Notes under the pieces: model-generated
The model's database searches: none
What the model saw: only the letters and a program-made list of their open reading frames with translations
What the model was told of the DNA's origin: nothing
Shown here: piece after piece, positions 136-5,476 of the stretch
How positions within the stretch are numbered: the stretch's first letter is position 1
Layout: every line of letters starts with the position of its first letter
IMG/VR virus record: IMGVR_UViG_3300046665_000413
Location: 1-29,886 of that record
Source: a virus
DNA: 29,886 nucleotides
Direction: 5' to 3' (one strand)
Translations under genes and position numbers: made by a program

Positions 136-678
136 GCTTTGCGTGGTGGCGAGTAGAGCGTTTCTCCTTCCCTGGACTAAGCAACCCGGGGTTCTCTGCA
201 GAATTGCTTAACCCCTTCTGGGGCATGATGAAGTATAATGTAACGACAACGTTACTAGAAGTAATGAAACATTCTTCGAAGTTGTCTTCGCCTACGGCGA
301 ACCCCAGGGACCGAGATGCTCTGGGGTACGACATCCCAGCTCGAACTTATACTTAACTATATTGAAGAGCTGCAGGTCTCGTGACATCAATACCGCATGA
401 GTTCATCATGAACACGGCCTTCGGGTCGCACAGAGTTTGAAGTATCAAACTGGTTTAAAATTTGCCGCCTAGGTTGATAGCCAGGGAGGGTAATCAAGGC
501 CAGAGAGTATCTGAAACAGTGCTCTACGTTGCTCTTGCCAAAAGCAAAAGCAAAATCTTTACCCAGCTGGGGCTGGGTAAAACTAATTCTGAGCTTAGAT
601 GTTACCGACGGGTCTCATCCTAACTTAGGTTAATTAGTATTAACCAGGTTGGTTCTGCACAGAATGTGTTCAAGCTAC
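136..678 (+). ncRNA. Gene-free, hairpin-dense stretch: candidate large structured RNA
   Basis: No credible gene lies here. The sequence is packed with near-perfect hairpins: CCCC-TTCT-GGGG (212-223), GTAACG-ACAA-CGTTAC (240-255), TTCGCC-TAC-GGCGAA (287-301), CCCCAG/CTGGGG (302-307 with 321-326), GTTCA/TGAAC (401-413), CGGCC-TTCG-GGTCG (415-428), GTTTGA-AGTA-TCAAAC (435-450), a 10-bp stem with one mismatch (529-538 with 544-553), TTACCCAG/CTGGGTAA (559-580) and GGTTAAT/ATTAACC (628-645). This density, with GNRA- and UUCG-like loops, suggests a folded RNA rather than a leader. Its position next to tRNA-like and Y-like RNAs in a phage recalls the large ornate GOLLD and ROOL classes, but I cannot assign it to either. 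Boundaries are arbitrary: the stop codon on the left, the first Y-like module on the right. Confidence 0.5.
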
Positions 679-734
679 GAGAGCCGCCGAACTGGATTAT
701 CGGCCAAAAATCTTCCAGTTCAATATTCGCTTTC
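679..734 (+). ncRNA. Y RNA-like module 0 (short, promoter-distal)
   Basis: An outer stem GAGAGC (679-684) pairs with GCTTTC (729-734) through one G-U. CCG follows at 684-686, then a perfect 8-bp second stem GAACTGGA (689-696) with TCCAGTTC (714-721). TTATC directly follows that stem (697-701). This is the Ro60-binding layout of Y RNAs, but the usual CTTTG before the 3' strand is missing. It lies upstream of the promoter at 752-760, so it would belong to the transcript of the preceding structured region. It is the weakest of the eight modules. Confidence 0.55.
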
Positions 735-751
735 AATAATTTAGAAGTTAA

Positions 752-760
752 TGGTATAAT
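752..760 (+). promoter_or_regulatory. Extended -10 promoter for the Y RNA array
   Basis: TGGTATAAT is a perfect sigma-70 -10 hexamer (755-760) with the TGn extension. It ends 7 nt before the first base of the outer stem of Y module 1 (768), which is where transcription should begin. No good -35 hexamer is visible at 17 nt, as is acceptable for extended -10 promoters. Initiation here would give Y module 1 an exact 5' end. Confidence 0.65.
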
Positions 761-767
761 AGATTTA

Positions 768-831
768 GTGAGCCGTTCTTATGTTGGGTTATCAATTGGT
801 GATTACTCCCCGGCATTACTCTTTTGCTCAC
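768..831 (+). ncRNA. Y RNA-like module 1 (minimal, 64 nt)
   Basis: The outer stem GTGAGC (768-773) pairs perfectly with GCTCAC (826-831). CCG sits at 773-775, and the second stem runs 781-788 with 809-816 (8 bp, two G-U). TTATC (789-793) follows immediately, and CTTTTG precedes the 3' outer strand. Human Y1 has the same order: CCGA, a stem, GAGTTATCT, and ACTTG before the closing strand. The loop is about 20 nt with no tRNA-like domain. Module 5 shares the identical outer stem, so the two look like copies. The probable partner is the Ro60 protein encoded at 2074-3705. Confidence 0.8.
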
Positions 832-850
832 TCACGCTTTAATCCTCGTA

Positions 851-881: not shown

Positions 882-885
882 GTTT

Positions 886-1016
886 ATGGACCGATAGAAT
901 GGGTTATCTAACTCCAAGACGCAAATACAGGTTCGAGTCCTGTACTCCGCTTCTGTTGCGGAGTTCATCTAATTGGCAGGATGGCGACTCCTGATTCCAT
1001 TCGATTACTTGTCCAT
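886..1016 (+). ncRNA. YrlA-like Y RNA with circularly permuted tRNA-like domain (module 2)
   Basis: The outer stem ATGGAC (886-891) pairs perfectly with GTCCAT (1011-1016). CCG is at 891-893, the second stem GAATGG (897-902) pairs with CCATTC (997-1002), TTATC is at 904-908, and ACTTG precedes the 3' strand as in human Y RNAs. Inside is a tRNA body read in permuted order. The T arm is ACAGG, loop TTCGAGT, CCTGT (927-943). The 3' acceptor strand ACTCCGC (944-950) is joined by a 7-nt loop (951-957) to its perfect 5' partner GCGGAGT (958-964). A D arm follows, ATCT/GGAT (967-982), with TTGG in the loop. The open anticodon end joins the Y stem. No CCA is encoded. This matches bacterial YrlA RNAs, in which a tRNA-like domain is tethered to the Ro60-binding stem. 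Confidence 0.85.
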
Positions 1017-1025
1017 CCCTCTTTC

Positions 1026-1089
1026 ACGGGCCGTTAGAATATCGATTATCTATCTTACAGGCAAACTCGATATTCACTTCTTTGCCCGT
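1026..1089 (+). ncRNA. Y RNA-like module 3 (minimal, 64 nt)
   Basis: The outer stem ACGGGC (1026-1031) pairs perfectly with GCCCGT (1084-1089). CCG is at 1031-1033. A perfect 9-bp second stem GAATATCGA (1037-1045) pairs with TCGATATTC (1067-1075). TTATC (1046-1050) opens the loop, and CTTTG precedes the closing strand. The stems differ in sequence from modules 1 and 5 but pair equally well, which is covariation-like evidence that structure is selected. Spacers of 9 and 10 nt separate it from its neighbours. Confidence 0.8.
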
Positions 1090-1099
1090 TTCAAGTTTC

Positions 1100-1269
1100 A
1101 AACGAACCGAACGTACTAAGGGTTATCTACTTCGACTAGTTAGAACGAAAGCATTACGTAGTTTCTGGAAACAGAATAGTGCCTGAGTCTAATACTGCTA
1201 TACTCTGCTTGAGCTAAAGCTATTGTGGGATGAACTCCCATATCTCCCTTGTCAATCACTTGTTCGTTT
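1100..1269 (+). ncRNA. Y RNA-like module 4 with a distinct 120-nt insert
   Basis: The outer stem AAACGAAC (1100-1107) pairs perfectly with GTTCGTTT (1262-1269). CCG is at 1107-1109, the second stem AAGGG (1118-1122) pairs with CCCTT (1246-1250), TTATC is at 1123-1127, and CACTTG precedes the 3' strand exactly as in human Y RNAs. The insert is not an obvious tRNA mimic. It has a hairpin GCATTA/TAGTGC (1151-1156 with 1177-1182) that contains TTCTG-GAAA-CAGAA (1163-1176), and another, TGGGA/TCCCA (1226-1240). The stretch 1183-1225 may form the rest of a junction. No GTTCRA-type T loop is present. Confidence 0.7.
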
Positions 1270-1278
1270 TTTCAGTTT

Positions 1279-1341
1279 GTGAGCCGTTTAGAATTGGGTT
1301 ATCCTTTTAAGATACTCCCCCAGTTCATTTCTTTTGCTCAC
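1279..1341 (+). ncRNA. Y RNA-like module 5 (minimal, 63 nt)
   Basis: The outer stem GTGAGC (1279-1284) with GCTCAC (1336-1341) is identical to module 1, as is the following CCGTT. The second stem GAATTGGG (1291-1298) pairs with 1319-1326 (8 bp, one G-U). TTATC is at 1299-1303, and CTTTTG precedes the 3' strand. The loop differs from module 1, so this is a diverged duplicate rather than a recent copy. Linkers of 9 nt lie on each side. Confidence 0.8.
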
Positions 1342-1350
1342 TTCAATTTT

Positions 1351-1480
1351 ACGGACCGTTAGTATTAGGTTATCTACTTTTGGGAAGTCGGGACGTTGGT
1401 TCGAATCCAACTGCAGCCTTGAGGGTTGTATAGCTTAGTGGATAGAGCACGTAACATTTCCTAGTACGCCTTTTGTCCGT
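1351..1480 (+). ncRNA. YrlA-like Y RNA with circularly permuted tRNA-like domain (module 6)
   Basis: The outer stem ACGGAC (1351-1356) pairs with GTCCGT (1475-1480). CCG is at 1356-1358, and the second stem runs 1362-1369 with 1460-1467 (8 bp, one G-U). TTATC is at 1370-1374, and CTTTTG precedes the 3' strand. The permuted tRNA body has a T arm GTTGG, loop TTCGAAT, CCAAC (1395-1411). The 3' acceptor strand TGCAGCC (1412-1418) is linked by TTGAG to the 5' strand GGTTGTA (1424-1430; 7 bp with G-U pairs). The D arm GCTT/GAGC (1433-1448) has the loop AGTGGATA containing the conserved GG. T and D arms match canonical tRNA consensus, but there is no anticodon arm and no CCA. It is the second clear YrlA-type module here and is only distantly similar in sequence to module 2. 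Confidence 0.85.
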
Positions 1481-1493
1481 TTCAGTTTTAAAT

Positions 1494-1609
1494 ACAGAGC
1501 CGCTTTAATTAGATTATCTTCTCCTATATCGAAGGACTGCCCAGAGGGGGCTCTCGAAAGAGACGGGTTCGACTCCCAGTCTAAACATCTAGTTATACCT
1601 TTGTTCTGT
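1494..1609 (+). ncRNA. Y RNA-like module 7 with a non-permuted mini-cloverleaf
   Basis: The outer stem ACAGAGC (1494-1500) pairs with GTTCTGT (1603-1609), one G-U. CCG is at 1500-1502, and the second stem TAATTAGA (1506-1513) pairs with TCTAGTTA (1588-1595). TTATC is at 1514-1518, and CTTTG precedes the 3' strand. The insert folds as a contiguous four-way junction: acceptor-like stem GGACT (1534-1538) with AGTCT (1578-1582), hairpin GCCC-AGAGG-GGGC (1539-1551), hairpin TCTC-GAAA-GAGA (1552-1563), and a T-like arm GGG-TTCGACT-CCC (1565-1577). Unlike modules 2 and 6, the tRNA mimic here is attached through its acceptor stem, not its anticodon arm. Confidence 0.7.
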
Positions 1610-1992: not shown

Positions 1993-2032
1993 GAAGGCCT
2001 GTTTCCAACCCGGATTCAGGCCTTCTTTTTTT
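1993..2032 (+). terminator. Strong intrinsic terminator ending the RNA region
   Basis: A perfect 9-bp stem GAAGGCCTG (1993-2001) with CAGGCCTTC (2017-2025) is followed by seven T residues (2026-2032). It lies between the RNA array and the Ro60 ribosome-binding site, so Ro60 expression needs read-through or a promoter I cannot see. Confidence 0.9.
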
Positions 2033-2073: not shown

Positions 2074-3705
2074 ATGTCTTTCAATACCCTCGCAAAGAAT
2101 ACGAATACCCGAGTAGCAGCACGTACCACACCGCAGAACAAGCCTGCTGGCAATGCACCTGTAGCACAGGTTAAGAACAACGCTGGTGGCTTTGTGTTTG
2201 AGATCTCTGGCATTCAAAAGCTGGATCGATTCCTCATCATCGGCACGAGCGGCGGTACGTTCTATGCTAACGAAAAGGATCTCACGAAGCAGAACACTGA
2301 CGAGATCGTGGCTCTGATCAAGGCTAACGGCAAGGTTGTGGTTGACCGTGTGGTTGAGATCAGCCAAGCCGGTCGTGCCAAGAACAATGACTATGCGCTT
2401 CTGGTCATGGCTCTGGTCTTCACCCACGGCGATGTTGCAACCAAGATGTATGCAAAGGATAAGTTGAACCTCGTGGCTCGTACTGGCACGCACTTCATGC
2501 ACTTCGTTGCATTCTCAAATGGGATGCGAGGTTGGGGCCGTTCGCTTAAGAGCGTAGTTCAGAACTGGTATTCCTCGAAGGATACCGATAAGCTGGCATT
2601 CCAGATCGTGAAGTACAAGCAACGTGACGGCTGGTCCCACAAGGACATCATGCGTCTGGCTCACGTTAAGCCTGGTACTGATCCGGTTCGTCAGAACCTG
2701 TACAAGTTCATCAACAAGGGTTCAGAGTCGCTGACGCAAGGTGACCTCGTGCCTCAACTTCTGATTGCTGCAGAGCAAGCCAAGACTGCAGATACGAAGA
2801 CGTTGATCAAGCTGATCCAGGATTTCAAGCTCACGCACGAAATGATCCCGAATGAGCAAAAGAATGACCCGAAGGTTTGGGAAGCTCTCGTGCCTCACAT
2901 GGGTCTGGGTGCGCTGGTTCGTAACCTGAACAAGCTCACGGCAGTTGGTCTGATCAAGCCTTTCTCGGAAACGAGCAAGATTGTCAGTGTCAAGCTTCAT
3001 GACGTAGAAGCAATTCGTCGTGAACGCCTACATCCTATGTCCATTATCGTAGCCCAAAAGGTTTACGCAAAGGGTCAGGGGGATAAGGGTTCGCTTGTAT
3101 GGTCACCTGCACGCAACATCGTGTCGGATCTGGAAGATGCGTTCTATGTTTCGTTTGAAGCAGTAGAACCGTCCGGTAAGAACATTCTTCTTGCTCTGGA
3201 CGTATCTGGTTCGATGAGCTGTGCAATCCCCGGAGCGCCACTGTTGAGCTGTGCTGAAGGCACTGCAATCATGGCAATGGTCACAGCTCGTACTGAGCCT
3301 TGGACCGAAATCCGTGGTTTCACGAGCGGTAGGAATGGCTTCAAGGATCTGGGTATCACGAAGAACGATACCTTGGCTACAGCTTGCAGCAAGGTCCGCG
3401 ACAATAACTTCGGTGGAACGAACTGTGCACTGCCGTTCGAGTATGCGCTTCAAAACAAGTGGGACGTGGATGCTGTCTGTGTTTACACGGATAATGAAAC
3501 GTGGTCTGGTGGCCAACACGTGTTCCAAGCAGCACGCAAGTACCGTCAAGGTATGAACAAGCCTGAAGCTAAGCTTATCACTGTTGGTATGGCAGTGAAC
3601 AACTTCAGCATTGCTGACCCGACTGACCGCAATATGCTGGACGTGGTTGGTTTCGATACGGCAACTCCGAGGTTCATTTCGGAATTTGTGGCTGGCAACC
3701 TGTAA
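2074..3705 (+). CDS. Ro60/TROVE-domain RNA-binding protein
   Basis: This is the phage homologue of Ro60/Rsr, a ring-shaped RNP protein that binds Y RNAs on its outer surface and misfolded RNA ends in its central hole. In bacteria it can tether to the exonuclease PNPase through a Y RNA. The protein is 543 aa, close to human Ro60 at 538. The TROVE HEAT-repeat region covers about 40-360 and includes the family signature GWGRSLKSVVQNWY (153-166) and KYKQRDGWSHKDIMRLAH (180-197). The VWA-like C-terminal domain has an intact MIDAS: D376-x-S378-x-S380 in DVSGS, T449 in GGTN and D473 in YTDNE. I chose the ATG at 2074 because AAAAGGAG lies 6 nt upstream; an in-frame upstream TTG at 2047 lacks such a site. 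The eight Y-like modules upstream are its likely ligands. Confidence 0.95.
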   Translation: MSFNTLAKNTNTRVAARTTPQNKPAGNAPVAQVKNNAGGFVFEISGIQKLDRFLIIGTSGGTFYANEKDLTKQNTDEIVALIKANGKVVVDRVVEISQAGRAKNNDYALLVMALVFTHGDVATKMYAKDKLNLVARTGTHFMHFVAFSNGMRGWGRSLKSVVQNWYSSKDTDKLAFQIVKYKQRDGWSHKDIMRLAHVKPGTDPVRQNLYKFINKGSESLTQGDLVPQLLIAAEQAKTADTKTLIKLIQDFKLTHEMIPNEQKNDPKVWEALVPHMGLGALVRNLNKLTAVGLIKPFSETSKIVSVKLHDVEAIRRERLHPMSIIVAQKVYAKGQGDKGSLVWSPARNIVSDLEDAFYVSFEAVEPSGKNILLALDVSGSMSCAIPGAPLLSCAEGTAIMAMVTARTEPWTEIRGFTSGRNGFKDLGITKNDTLATACSKVRDNNFGGTNCALPFEYALQNKWDVDAVCVYTDNETWSGGQHVFQAARKYRQGMNKPEAKLITVGMAVNNFSIADPTDRNMLDVVGFDTATPRFISEFVAGNL

Positions 3706-3728: not shown

Positions 3729-3754
3729 AGCCGGGTTTCGATCCGGCTTTTTTT
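3729..3754 (+). terminator. Intrinsic terminator after the Ro60 gene
   Basis: AGCCGG (3729-3734) pairs with CCGGCT (3743-3748), followed by a run of T residues (3748-3754). It closes the Ro60 transcript 24 nt after the stop codon and separates it from the palindromic region. Confidence 0.85.
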
Positions 3755-3765
3755 AGCTTCTGGAG

Positions 3766-4324
3766 AAAAAACTGGACACATGTCCAAAAAACTGGACAAG
3801 TCCGTTTTTTACTTTTCCTTTTAAATCAAGGACTTACAGAGGGTGTGTCCAGTGTGTCCAATTTCTCTAAAAAAAACTGGACAGCTGAAACCATTGCTGC
3901 ATAAGGCTTAGAGCCAGATTGTCCAGTTTTTTTGCCTTTTTTCCAAAAACCATACCTCACTTTCTTTTTGACTAAATAAAAAACAAAAAAGGAAAAACAT
4001 AGGGTTCACCCTAACAGTCCAGGAATATGGGGGTACTATATATATATTTATATTTGAACTTTTAAAAAAATATATTTATATATAAGAGAGTGTTTTCCTT
4101 TTTGGTAAGTTTTTTATTTCTAATAGAAAGTGAGGTATGGTTTTTGGAAAAACACGAAAAAAACTGGACAAAATCGCTGTGAGCCTTATAAACAAAGGCT
4201 TAGAGCCTGTCCAGTTTTTTATTTGGAAATTGGACAAACTGGACAGCAATGCTATAACTCATTGTTTTATATATGTTTTCACGTTTCATAGAAAACGGAC
4301 ATTTCTGGACATGTGTCCAGTTTC
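3766..4324. repeat. 559-nt imperfect palindrome with CTGGACA heptamers; candidate origin or operator array
   Basis: The whole intergenic region is an inverted repeat centred at 4045. The best arms are 25 bp and perfect: 3941-3965, starting TTCCAAAAACCATACC, with 4125-4149. Similarity continues outward to TGGACACATGTCCA (3773-3786) and CTGGACATGTGTCCAG (4305-4320). CTGGACA or its complement occurs at 3772, 3792, 3845, 3877, 3920, 4164, 4208, 4239, 4305 and 4314, with close variants between, often beside A or T runs. The centre (about 4035-4085) is almost pure A/T. Iterons around an AT-rich core suggest a replication origin; a partition site, an operator array or a MITE-like element are alternatives. 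No gene here is credible. Confidence 0.75.
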
Positions 4325-4335
4325 TTGTGATTCCT

Positions 4336-4344
4336 TGGTATAAG
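4336..4344 (+). promoter_or_regulatory. Extended -10 promoter for the metabolic operon
   Basis: TGGTATAAG resembles the TGGTATAAT of the Y RNA promoter and lies 24 nt upstream of the deaminase ATG, at the outer edge of the palindrome. No clear -35 is seen. It is placed to drive the tightly packed operon 4369-9719 and could be regulated by whatever binds the adjacent CTGGACA sites. Confidence 0.4.
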
Positions 4345-4368
4345 AGGGACGTACAGTAGGGGTAAACC

Positions 4369-4737
4369 ATGAATAGTAGACTGATAGATAAACTTAAAAG
4401 GTTGGCCCTTGACTCAGCTCAACCTGAAACTGGTAGGTATCGGATAGCAGCAGCAGTCCTTGATCGCAAGGGTAAAATTTTAGCCACTGGAACTAACTCA
4501 TACGTTAAGACCCATCCTCTTCAAGCTGAATACGCTAAGAAGACTGGCAACGGTCATCGTCACTGGCTACATGCTGAGATAGCTGCTTTAGTGAAAGTAA
4601 AGAATGGACTACCTGCCAAGATAGTAGTCGTGAGGGTTGGCAACGCTGGTGAACTAAGACTGGCTAAGCCCTGCTCCGTATGTGAGATGGCTATCAAACA
4701 GGCAGGAATTGAATCAATAGAATATACGGTAGGTTAA
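4369..4737 (+). CDS. Zinc-dependent deaminase of the cytidine/dCMP deaminase fold
   Basis: The 122-aa protein has the hallmark zinc site of the cytidine deaminase superfamily: H68-A-E70, with E as proton shuttle, and P101-C102-S-V-C105. Spacing and length fit a minimal single-domain deaminase. N-terminal strands (YRIAAAVLDRKGKILATGTN, 24-43) match the usual beta hairpin. The substrate cannot be read from sequence; free cytidine, dCMP or another nucleobase are possible, and a dUTPase in the same operon supports a role in making dUMP for thymidylate synthesis. It is first in the operon, downstream of the extended -10 at 4336-4344. The ribosome-binding site is weak (AGGGGT). Confidence 0.8.
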   Translation: MNSRLIDKLKRLALDSAQPETGRYRIAAAVLDRKGKILATGTNSYVKTHPLQAEYAKKTGNGHRHWLHAEIAALVKVKNGLPAKIVVVRVGNAGELRLAKPCSVCEMAIKQAGIESIEYTVG

Positions 4738-4741
4738 AGAG

Positions 4742-5476
4742 GTGACTAACGAAGAACTATTAGGAAATATACAGGGGTATCTATCTGATTATTTCCGCGG
4801 AGGAGACGTACGAATAAGAGACGTCATACTTCCAGGCCAAATTTTCGATCACAGCAGAGTTAGAGTATCGTTTAATTACATAGGAATATCCGCCCCTGGG
4901 GAATATTTCAACATAGAAACAAGTATTGATGCTTATATGATGGAATATGTGACTGGAGATGCAGTCATGCGCGTATGTCGAGAGATTACTGAAGGGATTA
5001 ATAGACACAGGAGAGAGTACATGGCACAGTGGAATCAACGTCAAGACCAACGTCTTAGACAACAGGAAGATCAAAGACGTGTGGCTCGTGGGCAGCAACC
5101 GGTAGAGCCTCAGGCAGAATTTCCAACAGCAGATGATCCGTGGGGTGGCACTGCTGCGGTAAATTCTATTTACAACGAATACCTCAGAGCTAGGGATGTT
5201 CACTTAAACAGGTTTCAGACTACTCCACTTACTACATCTGCTTCGCCTAATTGGTATAGCATATCTACTAATTCCACTCAGGCCCAATTTCAAGAACCTG
5301 TTCGAACTCACTCTTTTACAGAAGATCAGTTAAAGGCAATGCTTAAAAGCATGCTTAAGGACAATCTCGATCTCCGCATTAGCATGACGGAATCAGATGG
5401 AGAAGTCAGTGTTGAAGCAGAGATCTTCTTGGATGGTGAACTTCTAATTTCAGACTCAGACTCTATTCAACTATGA
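4742..5476 (+). CDS. Unrecognised 244-aa protein
   Basis: I do not recognise a family. It probably starts with GTG at 4742, with AAAGAG just upstream, 4 nt after the deaminase stop. The N-terminal half (1-95) is a compact mix of hydrophobic and charged residues. A strongly charged coiled-coil-like Q/R/E stretch follows (about 98-125), then a low-complexity linker rich in Ser, Thr, Asn and Gln. The C-terminal module (about 190-244) is acidic, with alternating hydrophobic residues typical of beta strands (DLRISMTESDGEVSVEAEI). It overlaps the DHH gene start by 4 nt (ATGA), so the two are probably translationally coupled. A minus-strand frame here is a shadow. Confidence 0.7.
   Translation: MTNEELLGNIQGYLSDYFRGGDVRIRDVILPGQIFDHSRVRVSFNYIGISAPGEYFNIETSIDAYMMEYVTGDAVMRVCREITEGINRHRREYMAQWNQRQDQRLRQQEDQRRVARGQQPVEPQAEFPTADDPWGGTAAVNSIYNEYLRARDVHLNRFQTTPLTTSASPNWYSISTNSTQAQFQEPVRTHSFTEDQLKAMLKSMLKDNLDLRISMTESDGEVSVEAEIFLDGELLISDSDSIQL

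What the first reader, a model, noticed from the sequence alone, without database searches (positions are those of the whole stretch)
886..1480. Two circularly permuted tRNA mimics inside Y RNAs
Modules 2 and 6 place a canonical T arm (TTCGAGT or TTCGAAT loop) and the 3' acceptor strand before the 5' acceptor strand and D arm. The acceptor stem is closed by a 5-7 nt loop, and the anticodon position opens into the Y stem. Acceptor pairs are perfect (ACTCCGC with GCGGAGT) or G-U only, though the two sequences differ. YrlA RNAs of bacteria have this design. Here it occurs twice in a phage. The mimics could attract tRNA-modifying enzymes or tRNA-binding nucleases, possibly acting as decoys against tRNA-cleaving defences; that last point is speculation.
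Basis: partly seen in the sequence, partly recalled or inferred. Interest (0 to 1): 0.88.

Follow-up and report, generated by a model that had tools for sequence, protein, structure and literature searches.

The report
Phage Y RNAs that mimic tRNA
A bacterial virus carries a string of eight small Y RNAs beside the gene for their partner protein Ro60, and two of them contain a rearranged imitation of a transfer RNA, a known kind of RNA that is here multiplied and diversified.

Summary
Window 885-1016 and 1350-1480 each hold a T arm, 3' acceptor strand, short closing loop, 5' acceptor strand and D arm in permuted order, inside a Y-RNA stem. Acceptors pair 7/7. The two belong to an array of eight Y-RNA modules (678-1609) upstream of a Ro60 gene whose Y-RNA-contact residues are kept. 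The design is that of YrlA. Y RNAs in phages are in print, and two tandem mimics also occur in Gordonia phage Cashline, so 'twice in a phage' is not unique. Unusual are size and variety: 7-9 modules and 2-3 mimics of different sequence per phage in this clade. Most likely they are interchangeable adaptor domains on phage Ro60 particles (function inferred). The decoy idea is in print for Salmonella YrlA and is disfavoured for nucleases that need the anticodon loop, because that arm is missing. Verdict: new variant of a known kind.

The parts
678..735 (+). Y-RNA module 1, short hairpin type, upstream of the promoter-like element
   Evidence: outer helix 6/6 pairs, CCG...GATTATC core
750..758 (+). 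TGGTATAAT, extended -10-like promoter element of the main array
   Evidence: identical in 6 of 6 loci inside a variable stretch; no -35 hexamer, and the consensus scan did not list it
767..832 (+). Y-RNA module 2, short hairpin type
   Evidence: outer helix 7/7
885..1016 (+).
   Evidence: Rfam YrlA 15.1 bits only
927..943 (+). T arm of mimic 1
   Evidence: 5/5 pairs, loop TTCGAGT
944..964 (+). acceptor stem of mimic 1: 3' strand 944-950, closing loop 951-957, 5' strand 958-964
   Evidence: 7/7 pairs; two-sided changes in orthologues
967..982 (+). D arm of mimic 1
   Evidence: 4/4 pairs, loop AATTGGCA
1025..1089 (+). Y-RNA module 4, short hairpin type
   Evidence: outer helix 6/6
1101..1268 (+). 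Y-RNA module 5, long apical domain without an evident tRNA-like arm
   Evidence: outer helix 7/7
1278..1341 (+). Y-RNA module 6, short hairpin type
   Evidence: outer helix 6/6
1350..1480 (+).
   Evidence: Rfam YrlA 30.1 bits, E 0.0084, below the gathering score 69
1395..1411 (+). T arm of mimic 2
   Evidence: 5/5 pairs, loop TTCGAAT
1412..1430 (+). acceptor stem of mimic 2: 3' strand 1412-1418, closing loop 1419-1423, 5' strand 1424-1430
   Evidence: 7/7 pairs with two G-U
1433..1448 (+). D arm of mimic 2
   Evidence: 4/4 pairs, loop AGTGGATA
1494..1609 (+). Y-RNA module 8 with a T-loop hairpin (1568) that is NOT in permuted order
   Evidence: outer helix 7/7; fails the permuted-mimic test; fold
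1993..2032 (+). terminator-like hairpin and T run that ends the non-coding unit before rsr
   Evidence: inverted repeat I12; stem changes on both sides between relatives; not listed by the scan
2074..3705 (+). rsr, phage Ro60 protein (543 aa)
   Evidence: Pfam TROVE 2.2e-34 and vWA_Ro60 4.1e-55; PDB 2nvo 1e-111 and 1yvp 1.3e-97

Best explanation
The window's phage makes a non-coding transcript (promoter-like element about 750-758, terminator-like hairpin about 1993-2032) that carries seven Y RNAs in a row, with an eighth just upstream. Each Y RNA has the same Ro60-binding stem and a different top domain. Two tops are YrlA-type tRNA mimics: circular permutations that keep the T arm, acceptor stem and D arm, with the Y stem in place of the anticodon arm and the acceptor end sealed by a loop. 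Shown by sequence: the architecture, its covariation across related phages, and the neighbouring Ro60 gene with its Y-RNA-contact residues. Inferred: the transcript is cut in the short linkers, each piece loads onto phage Ro60, and the tRNA-shaped tops act as adaptors that recruit host proteins that know tRNA by shape (TruB and DusA as modifiers; PNPase or another RNase as partner, as in RYPER), so that the phage Ro60 particle steers RNA decay or quality control during infection. Acceptor, T and D stems vary while staying paired and tRNA-invariant loop bases stay, which points to recognition of shape rather than of a given tRNA identity.
For: Eight modules with fully paired outer helices and a shared CCG...TTATC core on one strand. 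11 mimics: T stem 55/55, acceptor 73/77, D stem 41/44, outer helix 66/66 pairs, 0 of 2000 partner shuffles reaching any of these. RNAalifold recovers the mimic unaided for 5 orthologues, 12 of 32 pairs with two-sided changes; pairs slid by 1-3 columns drop from 97.1% to at most 43.9%. Orthologues score up to 44.9 bits, E 7.6e-7, against Rfam YrlA. Ro60 K180, R184, H197 are invariant in 18 of 18 aligned proteins and align with Xenopus K170, R174, H187; H187 is essential for Y-RNA contact (PMC4030889, passage). Promoter-like and terminator-like elements conserved in 6 of 6 loci. Strict survey: 98 Y modules on the sense strand and 0 on the reverse strand in 92 rsr loci. No mimic is a permuted copy of a phage tRNA. 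Published: YrlA is modified by DusA and TruB, and Y RNA tethers Rsr to PNPase (PMC8394870, passages; PMC4726728, passages). A Listeria phage study suggests the same role for abundant ncRNAs near an Rsr-like gene (PMC12282133, passage).
Against: No transcript, processing or protein-binding data. Free energy folding prefers other folds by 3.1 and 1.4 kcal/mol. The second mimic is recovered neither by unaided consensus folding of 3 sequences nor strongly by a model trained on the first (16.1 bits, E 0.043 in 233 kb). Both window mimics lie far below the Rfam YrlA gathering score (30.1 and 15.1 against 69). PNPase partnership rests on Deinococcus literature only; the host of this phage is unknown. 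Module 5 and the short hairpin modules have no assigned partner.
Confidence: 0.62

Rival explanations
1. Decoys: the mimics soak up host tRNA-targeting defence nucleases or toxins, protecting phage and host tRNAs.
For: The longer contigs of the clade carry many tRNA genes (18, 3, 22, 18, 18 and 21 matches in the six contigs, of which 3 are below the family cut-off and two of those lie in a Y module), which suggests that tRNA supply matters to them. Competitive inhibition of an anticodon nuclease is already proposed for Salmonella YrlA (PMC7790460, passage). Several mimics of different sequence per phage would suit several targets.
Against: The anticodon arm is replaced by the Y stem and the acceptor end is a closed loop without CCA, so anticodon- and CCA-directed nucleases lack their site. 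RtcB was found in 0 of 7 records and PF09414 RNA ligase in 0 of 7; PF09511 also 0 of 7, but its control was silent; the records may be fragments. Salmonella YrlA was not cut by the RecA-dependent nuclease (passage), which an inhibitor need not be.
Confidence: 0.12
2. The mimics are maturation handles: the tRNA fold lets host RNase P, RNase Z and modification enzymes process the polycistronic array, with no role in the finished particle.
For: The array looks like one long transcript unit with short linkers, and tRNA-like folds are natural processing signals (general knowledge).
Against: Only 2 of 8 modules hold a permuted mimic, and the cuts expected of these enzymes lie inside the acceptor loop, not between modules. 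Many Y-RNA arrays in other phages show no mimic by the same test.
Confidence: 0.12
3. Remnants of tandem tRNA genes: the 3' half of one decayed tRNA followed by the 5' half of the next only looks like a permuted tRNA.
For: Tandem phage tRNA genes do give scattered hits with a permuted-mimic model, and several relatives of rsr sit inside tRNA clusters.
Against: The two acceptor strands pair with each other and co-vary at all 7 positions. 29 normal-order tRNA genes, many in tandem, scored at most 13 against 15. Each mimic is enclosed by its own Y stem (66/66 outer pairs). ARAGORN finds 0 tRNAs here.
Confidence: 0.03

Closest known systems
YrlA (Y RNA-like A; Rfam RF02553)
   Same: Y stem next to an rsr gene; tRNA-like top in the order T arm, acceptor 3' strand, loop, acceptor 5' strand, D arm, with the Y stem at the anticodon position (model layout)
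   Different: Far below the RF02553 gathering score; two to three mimics of different sequence in a run of 7-9 Y RNAs; phage-borne; no RtcB in the records searched
Y RNAs of phages (Mycobacterium phage LinStu, Gordonia phage Cashline, Streptomyces phage Karp; ncRNAs of Listeria phage CKA15)
   Same: Y RNAs upstream of a phage Ro60 gene, at least one with a permuted mimic in LinStu, Cashline and Karp; a Y-RNA role proposed for CKA15 (PMC12282133, passage)
   Different: Fewer modules there (about 2-3 in LinStu, Cashline and Karp by eye); the RNAs are not annotated in the regions fetched
RYPER (Rsr-Y RNA-PNPase) of Deinococcus radiodurans
   Same: A Ro60 protein with Y RNAs that could tether a nuclease
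   Different: PNPase contact not testable here; the array and the mimic variety are features of these phages
Permuted tRNA genes (Cyanidioschyzon merolae type; recalled, no call)
   Same: 3' half before 5' half with an intervening loop
   Different: No anticodon arm and no CCA, so no functional tRNA can result

Membership tests
YrlA (RF02553) | encoded beside an rsr/Ro60 gene | tested here: met
   Ro60 ORF 2074-3705
YrlA (RF02553) | T arm, acceptor and D arm in permuted order inside a Y stem | tested here: met
YrlA (RF02553) | score at or above the curated gathering score | tested here: not met
   window 30.1 and 15.1 bits, best relative 44.9, cut-off 69; 0 of 7 records over it. So it is called YrlA-type by architecture and is not filed under RF02553
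YrlA (RF02553) | dihydrouridine and pseudouridine in D and T loops | not testable with these tools
   needs RNA; reported for YrlA (PMC8394870, passages)
Ro60-binding Y RNA | terminal stem with conserved bulged C and Ro60-binding core | tested here: met
   outer helix 6/6 or 7/7 in 8 of 8 modules, CCG and TTATC core (the core was the search pattern); that the second C is the bulged base is inferred
Ro60-binding Y RNA | physical binding to the local Ro60 protein | not testable with these tools
   contact residues K180, R184, H197 conserved in 18 of 18
Permuted tRNA gene | complete cloverleaf including anticodon arm | tested here: not met
   anticodon position opens into the Y stem; ARAGORN 0
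RYPER | Y RNA tethers PNPase | not testable with these tools
   inference from literature

The most novel reading that the evidence does not exclude
These phages keep a diversifying set of tRNA-shaped Y RNAs as exchangeable heads on one Ro60 ring, each head aimed at a different tRNA-binding host protein or defence factor. The array would be an arms-race cassette in which heads are gained, lost and remodelled (2 permuted heads in the window, 3 in L003, L004 and L006), including one head with the T arm in unpermuted order (module 8).
Probability: 0.15. Interest if true: 0.8.

Novelty: new variant of a known kind. Interest (0 to 1): 0.46.

Why it matters
As far as the passages I could read say, what the tRNA-like part of bacterial Y RNAs is for has not been settled. 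These phages provide natural replicates: several mimics per genome that share shape and tRNA-invariant loop bases but differ in stem sequence, next to plain Y RNAs in the same array. That makes the question directly testable by swapping tops, and the missing anticodon arm narrows the list of possible partners. It also shows that Rfam's YrlA model at its curated cut-off reports none of the phage mimics searched here.

Tried and rejected
MAFFT alignment of 17 whole modules and of 12 mimic cores misplaced the acceptor strands, so they were not used for pair counts; anchored extraction was used instead. A covariance model of the first mimic's orthologues was searched over 23 sources: it finds the first mimic, the additional mimics of the relatives and several named-phage mimics, but also junctions of tandem tRNA genes, and the second window mimic only weakly (16.1 bits, E 0.043); it is not used as support for that mimic. 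The first module counter undercounted (5 of 8 in the window) and had 23 reverse-strand hits against 144; the stricter one had 0 reverse hits but finds 6 of the 8 window modules. Of 27 hand-picked T arms tested, 18 scored 13 or more and 9 did not: window 1568, L006 4510, L012 4897, L015 4214, 4417 and 4862, L019 4757, L010 4872, and L020 2379, which by eye has a shorter acceptor with a UUCG loop and so cannot pass the seven-pair rule. In the 11-mimic count near-identical rows were left out beforehand (L002 = window; L004 and L005 about equal to L003; the second mimic of L008 equals that of L007 in arms), and the D-arm anchor demanded U8, A14 and GG and the T arm the motif GGTTCRANNCC, so those bases count as selected, not found; in L006 the anchor slipped one base (5 of 7 acceptor pairs; 6 of 7). 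Idea that the mimics are permuted copies of the phages' own tRNAs: rejected (1 of 10 acceptor 5' strands equals that of a phage tRNA, a tRNA-Gly of another contig). Promoter consensus scan: 3 hits against 2.9 expected, none at 750-758; promoter and terminator roles are therefore argued from conservation only. Key papers (Chen 2014, Sim and Wolin 2018, Wang 2018) are not held; what they say is taken from passages of papers that cite them or recalled.

Full report
WHAT IS THERE. The window is an IMG/VR virus record of 29,886 bases, identical over bases 1-2100 to a stretch of a 117-kb contig (L002). ORFs include tail-fibre-like proteins, a dUTPase, a deaminase and a homing endonuclease, so it is a tailed phage; the host is unknown. 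At 2074-3705 lies a Ro60 protein: Pfam TROVE and vWA_Ro60, best PDB matches Rsr 2nvo at 1e-111 and Ro60 1yvp at 1.3e-97.

EIGHT Y RNAs. Upstream of rsr a script found eight modules that share one plan: a 6-7-nt strand ending in C, then the rest of CCG, a few bases, an inner helix strand, [G/A]TTATC, a variable top, the inner 3' strand, a T-rich stretch and the 3' outer strand. In all eight the outer strands pair fully: 678-735, 767-832, 885-1016, 1025-1089, 1101-1268, 1278-1341, 1350-1480, 1494-1609. Modules 3 to 8 are separated by linkers of about 8-12 nt. A TGGTATAAT element lies just before module 2 and is identical in 6 of 6 loci, and a hairpin with a T run stands before rsr, with changes on both sides of its stem between relatives. 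The generic scan listed neither.

THE TWO MIMICS. Chance was tested in two ways. Dinucleotide shuffles of the stretch after each T arm never reached the observed score (0 of 1000 each), and 29 normal-order phage tRNA genes scored at most 13 against 15. Related contigs then gave independent versions: L003/L004/L005 (Rsr 93% identical), L006 (78%), L007 (74%) and L008 (72%). Eleven distinct mimics, in three positional groups, keep 55 of 55 T-stem, 73 of 77 acceptor, 41 of 44 D-stem and 66 of 66 outer-helix pairs, with two-sided changes at 3 of 5, 7 of 7, 4 of 4 and 4 of 6 positions. For the first mimic's five orthologues RNAalifold finds T arm, acceptor, D arm, the stem at the anticodon position and the outer helix without being told, and sliding the pairs by 1-3 columns destroys the signal (97.1% paired against at most 43.9%). 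For the second mimic the evidence is the pairing, the Rfam YrlA match (30.1 bits in the window, 44.9 bits and E 7.6e-7 in its L006 counterpart) and the shuffles. Unaided folding of its three sequences does not give the tRNA fold, and in free energy terms neither module prefers it, though such programs ignore the T-D loop contact.

OTHER TOPS. Module 8 has a T loop at 1568 that is not in permuted order; its L006 counterpart likewise. L012 has a Y RNA with T arm and acceptor hairpin but no D arm visible. Modules 1, 2, 4 and 6 are short hairpins and module 5 a long top with no T-loop motif. Relatives carry a further permuted mimic between the counterparts of window modules 5 and 6 (L003, L004, L006, L007, L008). 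In L007 the last modules are replaced by an ORF with a weak HNH match.

HOW COMMON. In 105 loci with a Ro60 gene (IMG/VR, six named phages, bacterial genomes; 80 of 376 viral relatives kept; 14 genome loci; duplicates dropped), 92 had at least 1000 bases upstream. A strict counter found 98 Y modules on the sense strand and none on the reverse; 26 of 92 loci have at least one permuted mimic at score 14 or more and 8 of 92 at least two (L003, L004, window, L006, L008, L012, L021, L106; mimic list: 36 on the sense strand and 0 on the reverse in 105 loci). Some of these may be tRNA-junction artefacts, as one search shows for a related model. Arrays of seven by this counter occur in L073 and L099. 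Among named phages, Cashline has two tandem Y RNAs, both with a mimic; LinStu has three Y RNAs, one with a mimic; Karp has two, one with a mimic (partly by eye). None is annotated in the regions fetched, and none of 13 loci gave a YrlA match at Rfam's gathering score.

HOW IT LIKELY WORKS. The Ro60 residues K180, R184 and H197 are invariant in 18 of 18 proteins and align with Xenopus K170, R174 and H187. H187 is essential for Y-RNA contact (PMC4030889, passage); that K170 and R174 also matter is recalled. So binding of these Y RNAs by the phage's own Ro60 is the natural reading. Published work says that the YrlA tRNA-like domain is modified by DusA and TruB and that Y RNA tethers Rsr to PNPase (PMC8394870, passages; PMC4726728, passages). 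A 2025 study of Listeria phage CKA15 proposes that abundant ncRNAs upstream of an Rsr-like gene are Y RNAs acting with a host or phage RNase (PMC12282133, passage). The new contribution here is the pattern of variation: stems change while staying paired, and no mimic copies a phage tRNA, although the longer contigs carry many tRNA genes. This fits recognition of overall tRNA shape by an adaptor partner. I put the structural claim at about 0.95 and the adaptor function at about 0.6.

THE DECOY IDEA. The anticodon arm is missing and the acceptor end is a closed loop without CCA, so nucleases that need the anticodon loop or a free CCA end have no site to bind or cut. RtcB was found in 0 of 7 records and PF09414 ligase in 0 of 7; PF09511 was also 0 of 7 but uninformative because its controls were silent. 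Salmonella YrlA is not cut by the RecA-dependent nuclease, and the authors suggest competitive inhibition (PMC7790460, passages). The idea therefore stays open at low probability and is not new.

VERDICT. A confirmed, well-supported observation of a known kind (YrlA-type mimics; Y RNAs of phages) in an unusually expanded and varied form. I searched for print on phage Y RNAs and YrlA; none of the listings or passages I saw describes arrays of this size or several mimics per phage, but the three key YrlA papers are not held, so absence from print is not claimed.

Noticed in passing
window 1494-1609; L006 4443-4550: Eighth Y RNA carries a T-loop hairpin in normal, unpermuted order, apparently with an acceptor-like stem facing the Y stem.
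   Followed up: partly
window 136-677 and 1616-1990: Long non-coding stretches, largely conserved in the closest relatives, with repeated TAGAGTAACTCT (1655, 1842) and GACATCCCAGC (330, 1762); perhaps further structured RNAs.
   Followed up: no
window 3740-4330: AT-rich stretch after rsr full of AAACTGGACA / TGTCCAGTTT repeats and a 116-nt inverted repeat at 73% complementarity.
   Followed up: no
L007 4124-4570: ORF with a weak HNH endonuclease match (E 0.00046, just under the cut-off) sits in place of the last Y modules, possibly a mobile gene inserted into the array.
   Followed up: partly
L124, L128, L129, L132, L133 (contigs of relatives): Large tRNA sets including tRNAs that ARAGORN names Pyl(cta) in four contigs and SeC(tca) in one, probably suppressor tRNAs reading UAG or UGA.
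   Followed up: no
L020 2183-2452 (Gordonia phage Cashline): Two tandem unannotated Y RNAs, both with a permuted tRNA mimic, between the integrase and the Ro60 gene.
   Followed up: partly
L012 4859-4950: Y RNA with a T arm directly followed by an acceptor hairpin closed by GCAA and no evident D arm.
   Followed up: partly
L023 4249-5026 (Gordonia phage GMA2): tmRNA (4249-4660) with a strong permuted-mimic model hit just after it (4704-4769, 51.5 bits) and a Pistol ribozyme (4970-5026), all within about 1 kb downstream of the Ro60 gene.
   Followed up: no
L013, L014, L016, L021, L023: In several phages the Ro60 gene and its Y RNAs lie inside or beside tRNA gene clusters.
   Followed up: no
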